Source: Winogradskyella algicola (GTDB lineage: Bacteria > Bacteroidota > Bacteroidia > Flavobacteriales > Flavobacteriaceae). Taken from it: DNA of 64,000 bases. Shown piece by piece: positions 8,487 to 43,183 of this stretch. The position numbers and the translations under genes were made by a program. Every line of letters begins with the position of its first letter. Positions within the stretch are counted from its first letter, which is position 1. The stretch lies in NCBI RefSeq assembly GCF_005869935.1, contig NZ_SZQF01000005.1, positions 1 to 64,000 of the forward strand, read 5' to 3'. The notes under the pieces are model-generated. The model ran no database searches. It was not told where the DNA came from and was given only the letters and a program-made list of their open reading frames with translations.

Positions 8487-8510
8487 AAAGAAAAATTTAA
8501 ATAATTTTTG

Positions 8511-12690: not shown

Positions 12691-13010
12691 TTTGACGGCT
12701 AGTAAATCGCCTTATCGATTCTAATTTAATTAGGGTAGGAAAGTCCGAACACCATAGTGCAAGCATAGTGGCTAACGGCCACCAGCCGAGAGGCTAGGAA
12801 AAGTGCAACAGAAAGAATGTACAGGTAATGCTGTAGTGAAATCAGGTAAACTCTATGCGGTGCAATGTCATGTATACCAACGTTTGAGGGCTGCACGTTC
12901 GATGTTGGCGGGTAGGCAGCTAAAGTTTGCTGGTAACAGTAAACGTAGATAAATGATAAGGGTTGGGACTATAAAGGTCTCAATACAGAATTCGGCTTAT
13001 AGGTTTGCTT
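12691..13010 (+). ncRNA. rnpB: RNase P RNA
   Basis: Class A RNase P RNA, the catalytic RNA that matures tRNA 5' ends. Hallmarks seen: the universal block AGGAAAGTCCGAACACC near 12736, CAGCCGAGAGGCTAGG, GTGCAACAGAAAG, GTGAAATCAGGTAAACTC, and the 3' block ATACAGAATTCGGCTTATAGG near 12983-13003. Length of about 320 nt fits. Ends are approximate because the P1 helix is not obvious by eye. It is divergent from dnaX and followed by an intrinsic terminator. Confidence 0.95.
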
Positions 13011-13017
13011 ATTATAA

Positions 13018-32306: not shown

Positions 32307-35243
32307 ATGGCTGCAAATTTAGAATCACATTTACAGATCTTAAGCAAGAATTTAGAGGGCGAATTTTACTTTGATGATTTAATGTTAAAGCTTTATGCGA
32401 CCGATGCATCAGTATATAGAATGCTACCAACAGCTGTGGCATTGCCTAAAACAATAGCAGATATTAAAAAGCTTATTGCATTTGCAAATACCCATAAAAT
32501 AGGACTTATACCCAGAACTGCTGGAACTTCTCTTGCAGGGCAAGTCGTGGGTAAAGGTATTATAGTAGATGTCTCTAAGTATTTTACTAAAATTATAAAT
32601 ATCAATGAGGTTAAAAAAACTGTCACAGTTCAACCTGGTGTGGTTAGAGACCAACTAAATAATTATCTAATGCCATTCGGATTGTTTTTTGGACCTAATA
32701 CCTCCACATCAAATCGTTGTATGATTGGTGGCATGGTAGGTAATAATTCTTCAGGAACTACATCTATTCAGTATGGTGTAACACGAGATAAAGTCCTTAG
32801 TTTAAAAACGCTTTTAAGTGATGGGAGTGAAGCTACCTTTGAGACAATAACAAGAGATGATTTTCTTCAAAAAACAAAAGAAAGTACTCTTGAAGGGCAT
32901 ATTTACAAATCAATTTATGAAGAATTAAAATCAGAATCTGTACAAAAACAGATTAAGGAAAACTTCCCTAAAGCCAGTATTCATAGAAGAAATACAGGTT
33001 ATGCGATTGATGAATTAATTAAATCTGAAGTTTTCTCTAATTCGGCATCTGAGCGTAGTCAAAGTTCAAAATTCAACATGTGCAAATTGCTAGCAGGAAG
33101 TGAAGGTACGCTTGCATTTACAACAGAAATAACACTACAATTAGATGACTTACCACCCAAGAATAGTGCTATGGTAGCTTTTCATTTTGAAAGCATAGCA
33201 AATTGTATGAAGGCTGTAAAACCATTAATGCAACACAATTTGCATACTTGTGAGATGATGGATGACACTATATTAAATCTCACAAAGCATAATAAAATGC
33301 AGCAAGAAAACAGAGTATTTATAGAAGGAAATCCTACAGCTATTTTAATGTGCGAGCTAAAAGCTGAAACTCAAGGCGCATTAGATCTTGAAATTAAAAA
33401 CCTTGTAAAGACAGCTGATGAGCTTGGTTTAAGTTATGCAGCACCAATCCTTAAAGGAGAAAACATAGCCAAAGCCATAGAATTACGTAAAGCCGGTTTA
33501 GGACTTTTAGGTAACATGATTGGTGATAAAAAAGCAGTGGCTTGTATTGAAGATACTGCTGTGGCTTTAGATGATTTGGATGCTTACATTGAAGAGTTCA
33601 CAACTCTTATGAAATCATATAACCAAAACGCAGTGTACTATGCGCATGCTGGTGCTGGTGAATTGCATTTGCGACCAATTTTAGATTTAAAACAGTCTAA
33701 GGATGTTAAATTGTTTAGAGCTATAACCACTGATGTAGCCAAACTTGTAAAGAAATATCAAGGCTCAATGTCTGGCGAACATGGTGATGGAATTGTGCGT
33801 GCAGAGTTTATTCCTTTAATGATTGGTGAAGCAAATTATCAATTATTAAAACGGATAAAATTAGCTTTTGATGTTGATAATATTTTTAATCCTGGAAAAA
33901 TTGTAGATGCTTTTCCGATGGATAAAAATTTACGGTACGAAACTGATAGAGAAGAACGACAAATAGAAACGTTTTTAGATTTTTCGCACTCCAAAGGTAT
34001 TCTTCGTGAAGCCGAAAAATGCAATGGCTCTGGTGATTGTAGAAAATTACCAGAGTTTGGTGGAGTAATGTGTCCGAGTTACAGAGCTACACGAAACGAA
34101 AAAGATACCACAAGAGCGCGAGCTAATGCGTTACGTGAGTATTTAACAAATTCTGAAAAGCAAAATAAATTTAACCATCAAGAATTAAAAGATGTTTTTA
34201 GCCTTTGCCTAAGCTGTAAAGCATGTGCGAGCGAATGTCCAAGTAGTGTAGATGTTGCAAGCTTAAAAGCCGAATTTTTATATCAATATCAAAAAGAAAA
34301 CGGAGTAACTTTTAAAGATAAGTTTTATGCCAATGCAACTAAGTATAACAGAATGGCATCTCGTTTTCCTAGTTTAGCTAATGTATTATTTACAACAAAA
34401 TTTATACGAGGTTTTATGAATGCTTCTTTAGATCTTCATCCTAAAAGAAGTTTGCCTTTGTTTTCTAAATCATTTTCTAAATGGGCTAAAAAGAAATCAT
34501 TTCTTGTACGAAACCCAATTAAAGAAGTTTACTTGTTTGTAGATGAGTTTAGTAACTCTTTAGAATTTGATATAGTTTTAGATCTTAAAGTATTACTTTT
34601 TAATTTAGGGTATAATGTTATAGATATAAGCCATTTAGAAAGTGGTAGAAGTTTTTTGTCTAAAGGGTTTTTAAAAGAGGCTAAGGCTATAGCTGATAAG
34701 AATATAACGTTCTTTAAAAATTGTATTAATGACGATTTTCCTTTGATAGGTATAGAACCTTCAGCCATATTAACATTTAAAGATGAATACTTAAAATTAG
34801 CAGATGATAAAACGGCAGCAAAATCTATTGCAGATCGTACTTTTTTGATAGAAGAGTTCATTCAAAATGAAATTGAAATAGGTAACATTACTTCCAATGA
34901 ATTTACCAAAGAAAGCAAAACGATTAAATTTCATGGCCATTGCTATCAAAAGGCGTCAGGTAATCAAAAATCAAGTTTCGATATTCTTAATTTACCAAAA
35001 AATTACAAAGTTACCATAATACCAAGTGGCTGCTGTGGAATGGCAGGTAGTTTCGGCTATGAAAAAGATAACTATGAAATTAGTATGCAAATAGGCGAGC
35101 AAACGTTGTTTCCTGCTGTAAGAAAAGCGACAAATGATACTATAATTGCAGCAAATGGCACAAGTTGTAGACATCAAATAAAAGATGGTACAGGACGTGT
35201 TGCTAAGCATCCTGTTTCAATTCTTAGAGAAGCTTTAGTTTAA
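32307..35243 (+). CDS. FAD-linked oxidase with Fe-S C-terminal half (YdiJ/D-2-hydroxyacid dehydrogenase-like)
   Basis: A 978-aa fusion. Residues about 40-260 form a FAD-binding type 4 domain (GLIPRTAGTSLAGQ; MIGGMVGNNSSG) and about 290-555 the FAD-oxidase C domain (HAGAGELHLRP; GEHGDGIVRAEF). Cysteine motifs follow: CNGSGDC near 571, CLSCKACASECPSS near 634, and a CCG-type GCCGMAGSFG near 909. This is the layout of E. coli YdiJ (about 1018 aa), a D-2-hydroxyglutarate dehydrogenase; D-lactate is the other common substrate. It ends overlapping the convergent LpxH-like gene by 9 nt. Confidence 0.88.
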   Translation: MAANLESHLQILSKNLEGEFYFDDLMLKLYATDASVYRMLPTAVALPKTIADIKKLIAFANTHKIGLIPRTAGTSLAGQVVGKGIIVDVSKYFTKIININEVKKTVTVQPGVVRDQLNNYLMPFGLFFGPNTSTSNRCMIGGMVGNNSSGTTSIQYGVTRDKVLSLKTLLSDGSEATFETITRDDFLQKTKESTLEGHIYKSIYEELKSESVQKQIKENFPKASIHRRNTGYAIDELIKSEVFSNSASERSQSSKFNMCKLLAGSEGTLAFTTEITLQLDDLPPKNSAMVAFHFESIANCMKAVKPLMQHNLHTCEMMDDTILNLTKHNKMQQENRVFIEGNPTAILMCELKAETQGALDLEIKNLVKTADELGLSYAAPILKGENIAKAIELRKAGLGLLGNMIGDKKAVACIEDTAVALDDLDAYIEEFTTLMKSYNQNAVYYAHAGAGELHLRPILDLKQSKDVKLFRAITTDVAKLVKKYQGSMSGEHGDGIVRAEFIPLMIGEANYQLLKRIKLAFDVDNIFNPGKIVDAFPMDKNLRYETDREERQIETFLDFSHSKGILREAEKCNGSGDCRKLPEFGGVMCPSYRATRNEKDTTRARANALREYLTNSEKQNKFNHQELKDVFSLCLSCKACASECPSSVDVASLKAEFLYQYQKENGVTFKDKFYANATKYNRMASRFPSLANVLFTTKFIRGFMNASLDLHPKRSLPLFSKSFSKWAKKKSFLVRNPIKEVYLFVDEFSNSLEFDIVLDLKVLLFNLGYNVIDISHLESGRSFLSKGFLKEAKAIADKNITFFKNCINDDFPLIGIEPSAILTFKDEYLKLADDKTAAKSIADRTFLIEEFIQNEIEIGNITSNEFTKESKTIKFHGHCYQKASGNQKSSFDILNLPKNYKVTIIPSGCCGMAGSFGYEKDNYEISMQIGEQTLFPAVRKATNDTIIAANGTSCRHQIKDGTGRVAKHPVSILREALV

Positions 35244-37444: not shown

Positions 37445-38770
37445 ATGAAGAAACTAGCATTACACTGGAAGATTATTATAGGAATGATTCTGGGAATTAT
37501 TTTCGGATTCATCATGAATGCTGTGAGTGGTCAGCAATTTGTTACAGATTGGGTAGCACCTTTTGGAACAATATTTATTAATCTTTTAAAATTAATCGCT
37601 GTTCCTTTGATATTAGCATCATTAATAAAAGGTATCTCAGATTTAAAAGACATTTCTAAAATTAGAGATATGGGTTTGCGCACTATCACCATCTATATTG
37701 GCACAACTTTGGTCGCCATTATTATAGGATTGTCCATAGTGAATGCTGTACAACCTGGAACTGGTATGCCAGAAGATACCATTGAGAAAATAAAGGAAAA
37801 ATACGAAAATGATGCAGGTGTTACAGATAAGTTAACCAAAGCTAGTGCCCAAAAGGATGCAGGTCCGCTTCAAGCTTTGGTTGATATTTTTCCAAGTAAT
37901 ATCTTTCAAGCCATGGGTGAGGCAAAAATGTTACAGGTTATATTTTTTGCGCTATTTGTAGGAATTTGTTTGCTTTTAATTGGTGATGAGAAAGCCAAAC
38001 CCATGATAGATATTTTTGATTCGCTCAATGAAGTCGTCATGAAAATGGTAGACCTGATTATGTTGTTTGCGCCTTATGCAGTATTTGCGCTTATGGCAAA
38101 TGTTATTATTGCATTTGATGATACCGAAATATTATTGAAACTACTTCAATATGCATTATGTGTTGTGGTAGGTTTGTTATTAATGATTTGTTTCTATCTG
38201 CTATTAGTGAAGATTTTTACAAAAAAATCGCCAATGTGGTTTCTTAATAAAATTAGTCCGGCTCAGTTATTAGCATTTTCAACAAGTAGTAGTGCAGCTA
38301 CACTTCCTGTAACTATGGAGCGTGTTGAAGAACATCTCGGTGTAGACAAAGAAGTTTCTGGTTTTGTTTTGCCAGTTGGCGCAACTGTTAATATGGATGG
38401 AACTAGTTTATACCAAGGTATAGCGGCAGTGTTTATTATGCAAGTTATTTGGCCCGAAGGGTTAACCTTTACTAATCAGTTGGTTATTGTATTAACAGCG
38501 CTATTAGCATCAATTGGTAGTGCAGCGGTACCAAGTGCAGGTATGGTGATGTTGGTGATAGTTTTAGAGTCGATTGGTTTTCCTGCTGAACTACTTCCCA
38601 TAGGACTCGCGTTAATATTTGCAGTAGACAGACCGTTAGATATGTGTAGAACAGTAGTAAATGTTACTGGAGATGCTACTGTCTCTATGATGGTTGCTAA
38701 ATCTTTAGGTAAACTTCATGACGACCCTAAGCCGAAGGAATGGGATGATAATTATAAAAAAGTAAAATAA
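37445..38770 (+). CDS. Dicarboxylate/amino acid:cation symporter
   Basis: A 441-aa DAACS (GltP/GltT) family protein with about eight transmembrane helices and two re-entrant loops. Signature motifs: FSTSSSAATLPVTMERVEE (HP1), PVGATVNMDGTSLYQG (TM7), SIGSAAVPSAGMVML (HP2) and DRPLDMCRTVVNVTGDA (TM8, substrate Asp/Arg region). It imports glutamate, aspartate or C4-dicarboxylates with Na+ or H+. A hairpin (37421-37438) just upstream of the ATG may hide the ribosome site. Confidence 0.93.
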   Translation: MKKLALHWKIIIGMILGIIFGFIMNAVSGQQFVTDWVAPFGTIFINLLKLIAVPLILASLIKGISDLKDISKIRDMGLRTITIYIGTTLVAIIIGLSIVNAVQPGTGMPEDTIEKIKEKYENDAGVTDKLTKASAQKDAGPLQALVDIFPSNIFQAMGEAKMLQVIFFALFVGICLLLIGDEKAKPMIDIFDSLNEVVMKMVDLIMLFAPYAVFALMANVIIAFDDTEILLKLLQYALCVVVGLLLMICFYLLLVKIFTKKSPMWFLNKISPAQLLAFSTSSSAATLPVTMERVEEHLGVDKEVSGFVLPVGATVNMDGTSLYQGIAAVFIMQVIWPEGLTFTNQLVIVLTALLASIGSAAVPSAGMVMLVIVLESIGFPAELLPIGLALIFAVDRPLDMCRTVVNVTGDATVSMMVAKSLGKLHDDPKPKEWDDNYKKVK

Positions 38771-38831: not shown

Positions 38832-39869
38832 ATGAATATTTGCTTTATAATGTATCCTTGGGACAAAGTAGATCCCGAAAATGATACTAGTCTTGCCTTG
38901 ATAAAAGAGTGCTCTAAAAGAGGTCATGGCGTAGCCATGTGCACTCCAGCCAACTTAACAATTAGAGATAGTGTTACTAATGCTTTTTGTAATGTTATTG
39001 GTAGAATGGATAAGGTGCCCTCAACCCTCAAATCATTCTATAATAAAGTGAAATTAAGAGAAGAAATGCTGCCGCTAGCAGGATTTGATGCTATTTTTTT
39101 TAGAGCAAATCCACCTTTAGATCCCATAATGCTCAATTTTTTGGATTCAGTAAAAGATGATGTATTCATTATAAATTCTTTAGAAGGCATGCGTGAGGCC
39201 AATAATAAGCTATATACTGCTGCATTTGGAGATGCGCACAGTAATATCATTCCTAATACGCATGTTTCAAAAAATAAAAAGTATTTGGTGCGTCAGATTA
39301 AGGAATCTAAGGCAGATAAAATGATTATAAAACCTCTAAATGGATTTGGAGGTTCAGGAGTTATTCTGATAGAAAAGTCAGCTATGAGCAATATTAATTC
39401 GCTTTTAGATTTCTATATATCTAATTCCGATGGCACTTCTAACTATGTCATCTTACAAGATTATATTGAAGGCGCTGACCAAGGCGATGTAAGGATTTTA
39501 ATGCTGAATGGAGAGCCTGTTGGTGCTATGAAACGTGTTCCTGGTTCTGACGATCATCGTTCTAACGTCTCAGCAGGAGGGAGCGTACAAAAGCATACAC
39601 TTACTAAGGCAGAGAAGGCACTATGCAAACAAATAGGACCAAAACTGGTTAAAGATGGTTTATACTTTGTGGGTATAGATGTTATTGGAGGTAAATTGGT
39701 TGAAGTTAATGTAATGTCGCCAGGCGGAATTACCTACATCAATAAAGTGTACAAGAATAAGATTAAGGTTGAAGAAAAGGTTATTGACTTCTTAGAAAGT
39801 AAGGTGCTAGATCAACTTCAAGCTTTTGACAGACGTACAAGGCTTCGTAAGGCGGTTGATGAAGCTTGA
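38832..39869 (+). CDS. GshB-like ATP-grasp ligase
   Basis: A 345-aa protein aligned by eye along its whole length to prokaryotic glutathione synthase: FFRANPPLDPIM (E. coli RKDPPFD), INSLEGMREANNKLYTA, ATP-grasp IIKPLNGFGGSGVILI, GDVRILMLNGEPVGA, NVSAGGSV and FVGIDVIGGKLVEVNVMSP. The segment after NVMSP reads GGITYINKVY where E. coli GshB has a CIREI-type sequence, so substrate choice may differ. No gshA is adjacent. Downstream genes encode a TerB-like protein, an amidohydrolase and a DUF1704 peptidase, so ligation of amino acids to something other than gamma-glutamylcysteine is plausible. Confidence 0.85.
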   Translation: MNICFIMYPWDKVDPENDTSLALIKECSKRGHGVAMCTPANLTIRDSVTNAFCNVIGRMDKVPSTLKSFYNKVKLREEMLPLAGFDAIFFRANPPLDPIMLNFLDSVKDDVFIINSLEGMREANNKLYTAAFGDAHSNIIPNTHVSKNKKYLVRQIKESKADKMIIKPLNGFGGSGVILIEKSAMSNINSLLDFYISNSDGTSNYVILQDYIEGADQGDVRILMLNGEPVGAMKRVPGSDDHRSNVSAGGSVQKHTLTKAEKALCKQIGPKLVKDGLYFVGIDVIGGKLVEVNVMSPGGITYINKVYKNKIKVEEKVIDFLESKVLDQLQAFDRRTRLRKAVDEA

Positions 39870-39931
39870 GTTTTATCTGCTAATTATATAGCGAAAAATT
39901 AATCCGAAAAACTTATTTTCAAGATAAAAGT

Positions 39932-40267
39932 ATGAAAACAATCGACTGGACGAGAGACGAACTTGTGGCATATATTTTATTATTTGCTGCAAACTCAGAC
40001 TTTAAAGAAAACAATAAAGAACGCAATGTCATTATTTCTAAAGTAGATATGAAAACCTTTTCAGAAATTCATGAAGAGTTTGATAAGGATAACGACTACC
40101 AAGGCATTCAAAAAATAATGACTAGTCTTACACAGCATAATTACGATAGAGAAGATGTAGAAATCCTTCTAGAGGATATAAAAACGCTGTTTTTTTCAGA
40201 TGGCGATTTTAATATTAATGAACGCATTATGCTGAAATCTTTAGAACGACTCTTCAAGACTTTATAA
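39932..40267 (+). CDS. Small acidic helical protein, TerB-like
   Basis: A 111-aa soluble protein. Helices with acidic residues at TerB-like positions are visible (LLFAANSDFKENNKERNVI; ETLFFSDGDFNINERIML-type end with DGDFNINE), as in TerB domains, which bind metal. It starts 62 nt after the ligase gene; its TAA overlaps the next ATG by 1 nt, so it is coupled to the amidohydrolase. TerB assignment is by pattern and moderate. Confidence 0.7.
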   Translation: MKTIDWTRDELVAYILLFAANSDFKENNKERNVIISKVDMKTFSEIHEEFDKDNDYQGIQKIMTSLTQHNYDREDVEILLEDIKTLFFSDGDFNINERIMLKSLERLFKTL

Positions 40268-41097
40268 TGGAGCGACTTTCAATAAATGCTATTGTAGCTA
40301 AAATAGAAACAGAAGAAACATTTCATGCAGTTTCTGATGATTATTCTTTTACTTTAAAAGTAGATGATTATGTGCCTTATGTATGCGGAGCAGTACACGA
40401 TGGACACCAATTTAGACAAGACCTTTGGGATAATTGCTTGCACTCAGCGTATGATAGGTGGTATGAAGAAGATCCTGAAACCAAAAACATGGTTATTTCT
40501 CATCCCATACTAATTTCTGGTTGCGATTCACGTTTCGAATATGATCTTAATAGAGATCCAAGCAACGCCGTTTTTGATACTGCTTGGGGAAAACAACTTT
40601 GGAAGCATCCTTTACCAAAAACCGAAAAAACCAAAAGTCTGCAGAAGCATGCTAATTTTTATAAAATTGTAAAAGCATTAATCTCCAAGATTGAAGAAAA
40701 GTTTGGTGTGTGCATAGTTTACGATATGCATAGTTATAATTGGCAACGTTGGGATAGGGAAGTGCCAACATGGAATTTAGGAACCTCTAATATTGATAAC
40801 AATCGCTTTGGTGAAGAAGTGGAATCTTGGCGATGTATGCTAGAAAGTATCGAGTTGCCTAATGATATAAAGCAAACCGCCAAGATTAACGATACTTTTC
40901 AAGGAAATGGATATTTCTTAAAATTCATTACCAATACTTTTGAAAATACTTTAGTTTTGGCAACCGAAATAGCTAAGGTGTATTGCGATGAATATAAACA
41001 GATAATTTATCCCGAAGTTGTTGCTGCTGTAGAACAGCAATTAAAGACACTTATACCGAAGCATGCAGACGAATTTTACACAAAGTTTAAGGCCTAA
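40267..41097 (+). CDS. N-formylglutamate amidohydrolase family protein
   Basis: A 276-aa FGase-family zinc amidohydrolase. Motifs: VCGAVHDGHQFR (metal His-x3-His region), SGCDSRFEYDLNR (Arg and Tyr for substrate carboxylate), VYDMHSYNW (metal and catalytic Asp/His) and GTSNIDNNRFGEE. The classic enzyme frees glutamate from N-formylglutamate in histidine degradation, but no hut genes are here. Start and stop both overlap neighbours by 1 nt (40267 and 41097), so it is locked into the ligase/peptidase operon and may act on an N-acyl or gamma-glutamyl product made there. Confidence 0.85.
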   Translation: MERLSINAIVAKIETEETFHAVSDDYSFTLKVDDYVPYVCGAVHDGHQFRQDLWDNCLHSAYDRWYEEDPETKNMVISHPILISGCDSRFEYDLNRDPSNAVFDTAWGKQLWKHPLPKTEKTKSLQKHANFYKIVKALISKIEEKFGVCIVYDMHSYNWQRWDREVPTWNLGTSNIDNNRFGEEVESWRCMLESIELPNDIKQTAKINDTFQGNGYFLKFITNTFENTLVLATEIAKVYCDEYKQIIYPEVVAAVEQQLKTLIPKHADEFYTKFKA

Positions 41098-42257
41098 TGT
41101 CCCAGATTAAGACTACAGAAGAGTTTCAAGATTTATTTGATATTGATGCTAATCTTAACAGGTTGGTAAAGAACATTGAACTACTCAATTATATCAACCC
41201 TCAGAATATTGCTGCAGAAAAGAAAAAGTTCTATTCAGCAAAATTTAATTACGAGCCAGAGTTTAATTATCCAAAAATGCGATTTAATGGTTACAAATTA
41301 CATCGCTTATTTTTTTCGCAACGTTTAGAACGTATAGAAGATGAAGACATTAGGCAATTATATGAAGACATTATTTACGAATATTCTGGTTTAATAGAAT
41401 GTATAGAAACTATTGGTCAAGGTCGTAAGTTTTATTTTAATAGTCTTAAGAGTTTTGGTACTCCAACAGAAAAAGATATTGAAAACGCAAAGTTTATTCT
41501 ACGCTTTGATGATTCTGAGTTTGATGAGGAAATGCTCCCTATGTATAACGCGAGTGAAGCTAGAGATTATTTTGCTGAATTTTCTAAGCGCTACGATTTT
41601 AAATACAACATAAAGATTTCTAATAATCTTTCTGCAGCTGCCATGGTTTTGAATAATACGCAAACTTTAGTACTAAGAAAAAGTCATAAATACAGTTTAA
41701 ATCAGCTTAAAGTATTAACAAATCACGAGATTGGAGTACATATGGTAACGACTTTTAATGCACTAGAACAGCCATTAAAAATATTTTCTAATGGTTTACC
41801 AAACAATGTTGAAACTCAAGAAGGTTTGGCAGTGTATTCTGAATTTATGAGCGGTTGCTTAACTATTGAACGGTTAAAAGAGTTGGCATTTAGGGTTATT
41901 GCTGTAGACAGCCTAAATAAAGGGTATAATTTTGCTGACACATTCCATTTGTTACACAACCAACATAAGCTAAATCGAGATAAAGCCTTTGCAATTACAT
42001 TAAGAGTACACAGAGGTGGTGGATTTACAAAGGATCATCTATACCTTAAAGGCATTAGAAATATTTACAAATACGCTAAAGCTGGAAATGATCTAGGTAT
42101 CTTGTTGACAGGTAAAGTCAGTCAGGAATACATACCGAATATGAACAAACTTATTGATTTGGGCTTAGCAGTTAAACCAAAGTATTTTACAGATGCTTAT
42201 GTGGTAAATGACAATACCAATCCCAACTTGGATTTTATTTTGAAGAGTCTTAAGTAA
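41097..42257 (+). CDS. DUF1704 (QEGLA motif) putative zinc carboxypeptidase
   Basis: A 386-aa protein of the family named flavohemoglobin expression-modulating QEGLA motif. The metal site is H210-E211-I-G-V-H215 (HExxxH) and the QEGLA glutamate is E242, in VETQEGLAVYSEF. The animal members of DUF1704 (MATCAP/TMCP) are tubulin tyrosine carboxypeptidases, so a C-terminal residue-trimming activity is predicted. C-terminal region has RVHRGGGFTKDHLYL. Start overlaps the amidohydrolase stop by 1 nt. Last gene of the operon. Confidence 0.85.
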   Translation: MSQIKTTEEFQDLFDIDANLNRLVKNIELLNYINPQNIAAEKKKFYSAKFNYEPEFNYPKMRFNGYKLHRLFFSQRLERIEDEDIRQLYEDIIYEYSGLIECIETIGQGRKFYFNSLKSFGTPTEKDIENAKFILRFDDSEFDEEMLPMYNASEARDYFAEFSKRYDFKYNIKISNNLSAAAMVLNNTQTLVLRKSHKYSLNQLKVLTNHEIGVHMVTTFNALEQPLKIFSNGLPNNVETQEGLAVYSEFMSGCLTIERLKELAFRVIAVDSLNKGYNFADTFHLLHNQHKLNRDKAFAITLRVHRGGGFTKDHLYLKGIRNIYKYAKAGNDLGILLTGKVSQEYIPNMNKLIDLGLAVKPKYFTDAYVVNDNTNPNLDFILKSLK

Positions 42258-42633: not shown

Positions 42634-42762
42634 AACAAATTGTGCTATTAACCAATTCGAATTTCCCTCAAAACGAATTGAATTTTGTTTGAGTTAAATT
42701 AGTTTTAAGTAAGTTGTTAATTTAAAGAAGGCCTTTTAGAATTTATTTTAAAAGGCTTTTTT
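42634..42762 (+). ncRNA. Candidate small RNA
   Basis: Between the -7 box at 42622 and the terminator at 42731 there is foldable sequence: an outer stem TTAAC/GTTAA (42648-42652 with 42693-42697) and an inner stem CAATTCG/CGAATTG (42653-42659 with 42674-42680). Length about 129 nt. No ORF of note. Not a known RNA family that I recognise. Confidence 0.3.
42731..42762 (+). terminator. Intrinsic terminator
   Basis: GCCTTTTA / TAAAAGGC stem (42731-42738 with 42749-42756), with further A-T pairing in the loop, followed by T6. It lies 470 nt beyond the DUF1704 stop, so it may end a separate transcript; in the other direction the U-run is weak. Confidence 0.7.
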
Positions 42763-43183
42763 ACATCAAGAATTTAGCTTTTAACTCGGGTGTAGGTATC
42801 ATACATGCATCTTTCTTTCCGTACCATTTGTATCGATTTTTAGCTACAAAGTCATAGACCCAATTTCTAATAAACGTAGGTACGAGAAAAAATATAGCCA
42901 TCAATTTTGTCGGAAAACTAAGTTGTTTTGCAACATGCAAAGCTGCGGTAGATTTATGATAAACCTTTTGCTCTGATGGATTATAAAGTAAAATAGAGTC
43001 TACTTTATTAGTGTCTATTTTAAATTGAGATGTTATAGACTTTCCAATATCGCTTTGGAGTGGTGCAAACAAGAACTTATTCTTTGTATCGCGTTTAATC
43101 ACATACAAAACACTGCTGTTGCAAAGGTTGCATACACCATCAAAAAGTATAAGTTGCTTATTTTTTGGCACATCGTTTACCAT
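42761..43183 (-). CDS. DCC1-like thiol-disulfide oxidoreductase family protein (DUF393)
   Basis: A 140-aa protein with the family signature ILFDGVCNLCNSSVLYV; the C-x-x-C pair is Cys18/Cys21, in a thioredoxin-like setting. DUF393 proteins are predicted redox proteins of unknown partner. A TATCTTTG -7 box lies at 43195-43188, only 4 nt before the ATG, so the mRNA may be leaderless. No other Met precedes the CxxC motif. Confidence 0.85.
   Translation of the reverse strand: MVNDVPKNKQLILFDGVCNLCNSSVLYVIKRDTKNKFLFAPLQSDIGKSITSQFKIDTNKVDSILLYNPSEQKVYHKSTAALHVAKQLSFPTKLMAIFFLVPTFIRNWVYDFVAKNRYKWYGKKDACMIPTPELKAKFLM

What the first reader, a model, noticed from the sequence alone, without database searches (positions are those of the whole stretch)
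38832..42257. ATP-grasp ligase / TerB-like / amidohydrolase / DUF1704 peptidase operon: a possible build-and-trim peptide system
Four genes are packed with a 62-nt gap and two 1-nt overlaps (40267, 41097). Seen: GshB-type ATP-grasp motifs, FGase-type metal motifs, and a HExxxH plus QEGLA metallopeptidase. Known: animal DUF1704 enzymes (MATCAP/TMCP) remove C-terminal tyrosine from tubulin, and the opposing tubulin tyrosine ligase is an ATP-grasp enzyme. Inferred: the bacterial operon may add residues with the ligase and remove them with the peptidase and amidohydrolase, acting on a peptide, a small metabolite or a protein tail. There is no gshA or hut gene nearby, so textbook glutathione or histidine pathways do not explain the set. 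Related neighbourhoods may already be noted in comparative work on ATP-grasp enzymes.
Basis: partly seen in the sequence, partly recalled or inferred. Interest (0 to 1): 0.72.

Follow-up and report, generated by a model that had tools for sequence, protein, structure and literature searches.

The report
Glutathione-lookalike peptide build-and-trim operon
A conserved bacterial gene set pairs a ligase that databases call glutathione synthase with two hydrolases of metal-dependent families, one related to the animal enzyme that trims tubulin tails, and it likely builds and trims a small peptide other than glutathione.

Summary
Four tightly packed genes lie at the stated coordinates. The conserved core is three: GshB-like ATP-grasp ligase (GRASP), FGase-type hydrolase and MATCAP/DUF1704, in order and co-directional in 78 of 80 flavobacterial loci. 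A second arrangement occurs on rhizobial megaplasmids, including Sinorhizobium meliloti 1021 pSymB; Photobacterium has GRASP beside an FGase-MATCAP fusion. In 296 genomes of the phylum the ligase (at least 396 bits) occurs in 15, all among the 16 with MATCAP. The "TerB-like" gene is optional (24 of 80), fused to a sulfurtransferase-like protein in 9 of 80, and no supported TerB. The ligase forms two clades apart from true GshB; 9 of 15 carriers lack both gshA families that were searched with a working control. A long MATCAP form carries a predicted degenerate FGase-fold domain. Most likely the set builds and trims a glutamyl, perhaps thiol, peptide; substrate and chemistry are untested. Exceptions exist: lone MATCAP, lone ligase, lone fused hydrolase. 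A published "GshB" induction at low salt in Photobacterium probably concerns this ligase.

The parts
38832..39869 (+). GRASP1: GshB-like ATP-grasp ligase (PRK12458 clade), 345 aa
   Evidence: PRK12458 458 bits, GSH-S_ATP 186 bits, TIGR01380 234 bits against a cut-off of 299; clade apart from true GshB
39932..40267 (+). Optional small protein, 111 aa ('TerB-like' not supported); in 9 of 80 related loci it is the C-terminal domain of a sulfurtransferase-like protein
40267..41097 (+). FGase-fold hydrolase, 276 aa; H44, E67, E68, R89, N95, R96, H155, E234 invariant in 15 aligned proteins
41097..42257 (+). MATCAP/DUF1704 metallocarboxypeptidase-family protein, 386 aa (short form)
   Evidence: PF08014 329 bits; HExxxH and QEG invariant; family profile matches human MATCAP 7z5g at E 5.3e-16
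37445..38770 (+). SDF-family dicarboxylate/amino-acid symporter upstream, possible accessory
   Evidence: PF00375 419 bits; directly upstream of GRASP in 49 of 76 loci; not labelled in the six rhizobial trio loci L124-L127, L136, L137

Best explanation
This conserved bacterial gene set pairs a GshB-like ATP-grasp ligase, predicted to join an amino acid to a small glutamyl peptide, with an FGase-fold hydrolase and a MATCAP-family protein that likely trim that peptide back, so that the set would build and turn over a peptide that is probably not glutathione. Shown: gene identities, conservation of the trio, a distinct ligase clade, conserved residues, FGase-MATCAP fusions. Inferred: (1) the ligase activates a peptide carboxylate with ATP and adds an amino acid, as ATP-grasp ligases do; (2) MATCAP removes C-terminal residues, reading an acidic residue before the cut as human TMCP1 does; (3) the FGase-type enzyme frees an acylated or glutamyl end; (4) in relatives with the sulfurtransferase-like gene the peptide or its partner carries a thiol or persulfide. 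The two hydrolases probably act together, because they are fused, or MATCAP carries a fused FGase-fold domain, in several lineages.
Against: No substrate, product or activity is known. Of the 16 MATCAP loci, 3 lack an FGase gene (G053, G273, G186) and 1 lacks the ligase (G186). One of 80 named loci, L095, has neither ligase nor FGase. Vibrio L122 has the fused hydrolase with no ligase in the 17 kb read, and Ensifer L139 a lone ligase in 11 kb, so the parts can stand apart. Six of 15 carriers, the window's genome included, hold a GCS2 gene. The window's ligase passes one NCBIfam glutathione synthase cut-off (PRK05246: 281 against 272). The window's genome has no full-length sulfurtransferase of this kind, so the thiol link is not general. 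The absence of PF08886 (0 of 16) had no positive control.
Confidence: 0.42

Rival explanations
1. A writer-eraser system on a protein tail: the ligase adds a residue to the C-terminus of a cellular protein and MATCAP takes it off, as tubulin tyrosine ligase and MATCAP do in animals.
For: MATCAP family membership; human TMCP1 reads a penultimate Glu on a protein tail (PMC10499314, passages).
Against: The ligase is GshB-like, not TTL-like; GshB acts on small peptides (established knowledge). A second hydrolase of FGase type is not needed. No candidate substrate protein was found; the small-ORF scan beside 80 loci found no conserved precursor in the operon, and proteins elsewhere were not tested.
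Confidence: 0.15
2. A glutathione synthase with scavenging hydrolases: the ligase makes glutathione from imported or otherwise made gamma-Glu-Cys and the hydrolases recycle it.
For: Best solved relative by sequence is E. coli GshB (1gsa, 2.4e-38); PRK05246 cut-off passed; source names of relatives are glutathione synthase or synthetase; 6 of 15 carriers hold a GCS2 gene.
Against: Separate clade from E. coli and two same-phylum true GshB; those two score 408 and 407 bits on TIGR01380 and lie near a GCS2 gene, the window's ligase 234; 9 of 15 carriers lack PF04107 and PF04262; the window genome's GCS2 gene sits with another ATP-grasp gene, a pair present also in G226, which lacks MATCAP.
Confidence: 0.15
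3. A degradative set: the two hydrolases break down acylated or glutamyl peptides for nutrition, and the ligase reuses the fragments.
For: Two hydrolases to one ligase; SDF symporter directly upstream in 49 of 76 loci; the FGase family name suggests N-acyl-glutamate hydrolysis.
Against: The ligase tracks MATCAP almost perfectly across the phylum sample, which a purely degradative role would not require. Signal peptides and hut genes were not tested.
Confidence: 0.13
4. Carrier-protein biosynthesis like LysW-LysX-LysK: an amino acid is loaded by the ligase on the tail of a carrier, modified, and released by the carboxypeptidase.
For: Same enzyme logic (ATP-grasp plus metallocarboxypeptidase; recalled); RimK and LysX profiles score below cut-off on the ligase.
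Against: No conserved small carrier beside 80 loci; the small gene is optional (24 of 80) and its C-terminus varies.
Confidence: 0.08

Closest known systems
Prokaryotic glutathione synthase GshB (TIGR01380; E. coli 1gsa)
   Same: N-terminal and ATP-grasp domains, sequence relationship, 31 shared conserved positions
   Different: Separate clades, 14 differing positions, gshA families missing in 9 of 15 carriers, found with MATCAP in 15 of 15 genomes of the phylum sample
MATCAP/TMCP tubulin metallocarboxypeptidases (KIAA0895L; 7z5g, 7z6s)
   Different: Bacterial, paired with a ligase and an FGase-type hydrolase; two bacterial forms, short and long
N-formylglutamate amidohydrolase / FGase (PF05013; 2q7s, 2odf)
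   Different: HutG equivalog TIGR02017 only 17 bits against 279; fused to MATCAP in several lineages
3-mercaptopyruvate sulfurtransferase (PRK11493), accessory in relatives
   Same: 205 bits to PRK11493 for L022; motif CG[ST]G[ILV]TA in 33 of 34
   Different: Below the 250-bit cut-off; carries the small domain in 9 of 80 loci; absent from the window
Amidoligase/peptidase gene neighbourhoods described by Iyer and colleagues, 2009 (recalled, not read)
   Same: ATP-grasp ligases next to unrelated peptidases (recalled)
   Different: I could not check whether this exact trio is listed there

Membership tests
Glutathione synthase (GshB) | Passes the equivalog model TIGR01380 | tested here: not met
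   233.8 bits against 299; true GshB of G194 and G076 408 and 407
Glutathione synthase (GshB) | Passes the equivalog model PRK05246 | tested here: met
   281 against 272 for the window; two GRASP2 relatives 218 and 213, below
Glutathione synthase (GshB) | Groups with known GshB in a tree | tested here: not met
   Three separate groups, 100/99, 99/99, 100/99, 35 rows, only 3 of them GshB proper; long branches warned of within GRASP2
Glutathione synthase (GshB) | gamma-Glu-Cys supplier (gshA) in the genome | tested here: inconclusive
   PF04262 0 of 23; PF04107 absent in 9 of 15 carriers but present in 6 incl. the window genome; PF08886 0 of 16 with no positive control
Glutathione synthase (GshB) | Makes glutathione | not testable with these tools
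   needs an enzyme assay
MATCAP/TMCP | PF08014 over cut-off with HExxxH and [QE]EG | tested here: met
   329 bits against 27; invariant residues; human motifs HExxxH and EEG (PMC10499314 passages)
MATCAP/TMCP | C-terminal trimming of tubulin tails | not testable with these tools
   needs an assay
TIGR02421 QEGLA family | Passes the curated cut-off | tested here: not met
   313.9 bits against 338.65 for the window; the L021 fusion passes, 381
HutG N-formylglutamate deformylase | Passes TIGR02017 | tested here: not met
   17.4 bits against 278.75
FGase family PF05013 | Pfam match and fold | tested here: met
TerB | PF05099 over cut-off | tested here: not met
   no match in the window protein; 2 of 11 members at E up to 0.1, best E 0.0082, 16.9 bits against 24.4
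Tubulin tyrosine ligase family | PF03133 over cut-off | tested here: not met
   not listed for the window ligase; 15.3 bits against 20.1 for one of two GRASP2 scanned
LysW-type carrier system or RiPP | Conserved small carrier or precursor encoded beside the enzymes | tested here: inconclusive
   none inside the operon among 618 small ORFs from a fixed stretch of 80 loci; carriers elsewhere not searched

The most novel reading that the evidence does not exclude
Bacteria use a ligase-carboxypeptidase cycle on acidic peptide tails, with the MATCAP eraser already paired with an ATP-grasp writer, and the animal tubulin-tail eraser was recruited from this older peptide cycle; the bacterial cycle makes a new small peptide cofactor that databases file as glutathione.
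Probability: 0.15. Interest if true: 0.85.

Novelty: new variant of a known kind. Interest (0 to 1): 0.55.

Why it matters
Proteins close to this ligase carry the name glutathione synthase or synthetase wherever a source named them among the 120 listed, and so do the rhizobial ligases beside MATCAP, so stress papers may credit glutathione for what this set does. It also gives the tubulin-trimming enzyme family a bacterial partner set in which an older substrate could be found, and a laboratory strain, Sinorhizobium meliloti 1021, carries the trio on pSymB.

Tried and rejected
Glutathione synthase as the plain answer: disfavoured by the tree, model scores and gshA distribution, not excluded. 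TerB: not supported. HutG: not supported. An operon-encoded precursor peptide: none found; the largest small-ORF cluster, 10 loci, is a hydrophobic peptide some 4 kb downstream on the other strand. That scan used a fixed stretch around position 8500, so in loci cut by contig ends it was partly off target. The long MATCAP's N-terminal part as an unknown domain: a profile comparison hinted at FGase (Prob 45, E 2e-4 in a single comparison) and the structure model supports that fold. Promoter scan: 21 found, 25.0 in shuffles; terminator scan: 5 found, 3.1 in shuffles: nothing usable. One phage record with a MATCAP-like frame is marked UNVERIFIED; no ligase or FGase was labelled in its 12.6 kb. Literature: the searches listed no paper that by title or abstract start is on this trio; subscription papers are not held, and the 2009 amidoligase paper, looked up by a DOI from memory, was not held, so prior description is possible. 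Papers: passages of PMC10308900, PMC3091676, PMC3462692, PMC12612596, PMC4431377 and PMC10499314 (of the last also section 11 whole); PMC12393276 searched, no passage returned; all others in search listings only. My ORF overlap filter dropped some true genes (L030 MATCAP, L124 FGase).
Full report
Observation. Gene 1 is a GshB-like ATP-grasp protein (PRK12458 458 bits, cut-off 408), gene 3 an FGase-family protein (46 bits, cut-off 29), gene 4 a MATCAP/DUF1704 protein (329 bits, cut-off 27). Gene 2 has no supported family; 2 of 11 aligned members touch TerB, best E 0.0082, below its cut-off. The nearest named relatives are Winogradskyella species, whose MATCAP is up to 95% identical, so the phylum is taken to be Bacteroidota.

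Conservation. A PF08014 search of 296 genomes of the phylum found MATCAP in 16. At those 16 loci the ligase is present in 15 and an FGase gene or fused FGase domain in 13; G186 has a lone, divergent MATCAP (23% identity to the window's), and G053 and G273 lack an FGase gene. Searching the phylum sample again with PRK12458 gave a clear break: 15 genomes at 396 bits or more, all of them MATCAP carriers, then 214.8 and 193.9 bits in two genomes without MATCAP (Fisher 2.6e-24, uncorrected for kinship). In the window's family 128 of 249 genomes carry MATCAP. In 80 named loci, the best 80 of 580 confirmed, the order ligase, FGase, MATCAP on one strand holds in 78; of the two misses L060 is cut by a contig end, and L095 truly has SDF followed by MATCAP with neither partner. 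FGase and MATCAP frames overlap by 4 or 1 nt in 30 of 79.

The small gene and sulfur. 32 of 80 loci hold a two-domain rhodanese-like gene, by the order listing between ligase and FGase; its best model is 3-mercaptopyruvate sulfurtransferase (205 bits, cut-off 250, L022), and 33 of 34 proteins bear CG[ST]G[ILV]TA; that this motif marks mercaptopyruvate enzymes is recalled. The window's small gene is a separate gene in 15 of 80 loci and the C-terminal domain of that rhodanese in 9 of 80. The window's genome has no full-length copy of the rhodanese: one match of 62 residues, E 5.4e-4.

Not glutathione synthase, most likely. A maximum-likelihood tree of 35 rows separates GRASP1 (21), GRASP2 (11) and GshB proper (3) with supports 100/99, 99/99 and 100/99. 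Two GshB proper of the same phylum score 408 and 407 on TIGR01380 and lie one to two ORFs from a GCS2 gene, though they too lack PF04262. The window's ligase scores 234, below 299, though it passes PRK05246 (281 against 272). Among positions where the three GshB agree, 31 are kept in both ligase groups and 14 differ, one of them a gap column (83 and 11 rows). Kept ones include R86, K125, K160, D208, R210, R225, R233, D273, E281 and N283 of E. coli, several of which I recall as ATP or metal ligands; differing ones include G234 and T288. PF04262 is absent in 23 of 23 genomes tested and PF04107 in 9 of 15 ligase carriers; PF08886 gave 0 of 16 but no control rang. In the window's genome the GCS2 gene lies beside an RLAN-RimK ATP-grasp gene; a matching pair lies in G226, which lacks MATCAP.

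Expression and distribution in print. In Photobacterium damselae at low salt the genes annotated GshB (RS17020, 38.4-fold) and QEGLA protein (RS17025, 27.5-fold) are strongly induced (PMC10308900 passages); the authors discuss the first as glutathione synthetase. A P. damselae protein named glutathione synthetase is 84% identical to Photobacterium L123 GRASP1; that it is RS17020 itself is inferred. In Vibrio vulnificus, VV2_1203 (COG3930) and VV2_1204 (glutathione synthetase, COG0189) are neighbouring tags in a table of clade 2-specific genes (PMC3091676 passages); that COG3930 is this MATCAP family is recalled.

Mechanism. The common thread is glutamyl peptides: GshB acts on gamma-Glu-Cys and FGase on N-formyl-Glu (established knowledge), and MATCAP on Glu-rich tails (PMC10499314). 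I therefore commit to a build-and-trim cycle on a small glutamyl peptide, perhaps a thiol in lineages with the sulfurtransferase-like gene. Every step from ATP use to product is inferred; only conservation, relationships, predicted folds and residues are shown.

Noticed in passing
G000:C44:57500-65500 (L120 1922-5274): A GCS2 gene sits directly after an RLAN-RimK ATP-grasp gene with a 226-aa gene behind; a like-sized row of genes is in G226 (L121). Another uncharacterised ligase set.
   Followed up: partly
L131 946-4381, L132 3647-7039: GshB proper in two genomes of the phylum lies with a DNase II-like gene (in two ORFs in L131) and a GCS2 gene, apparently a real glutathione operon.
   Followed up: partly
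L122 6687-7046, L123 5622-6026: A DUF413 (MaoP-like) gene lies directly upstream of the fusion or of its ligase in both Vibrionaceae records.
   Followed up: no
L017 6931-8205: A lone, divergent MATCAP without ligase or FGase in G186.
   Followed up: no
L095 6553-9137: Flagellimonas hadalis has SDF followed directly by MATCAP, with ligase and FGase missing.
   Followed up: partly
L135 5152-6657: A MATCAP-like frame in an UNVERIFIED record of Pseudomonas phage Y1.
   Followed up: partly
window 42761-43183: DCC1-like thiol-disulfide oxidoreductase gene on the opposite strand, labelled in 54 of 80 related loci; probably family synteny.
   Followed up: partly
window 12699-13015: Bacterial RNase P RNA class A, 196.7 bits.
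   Followed up: no
window 32307-35243: 978-aa protein that by eye reads like a fused FAD-linked oxidase and iron-sulfur domain protein; not scanned.
   Followed up: no
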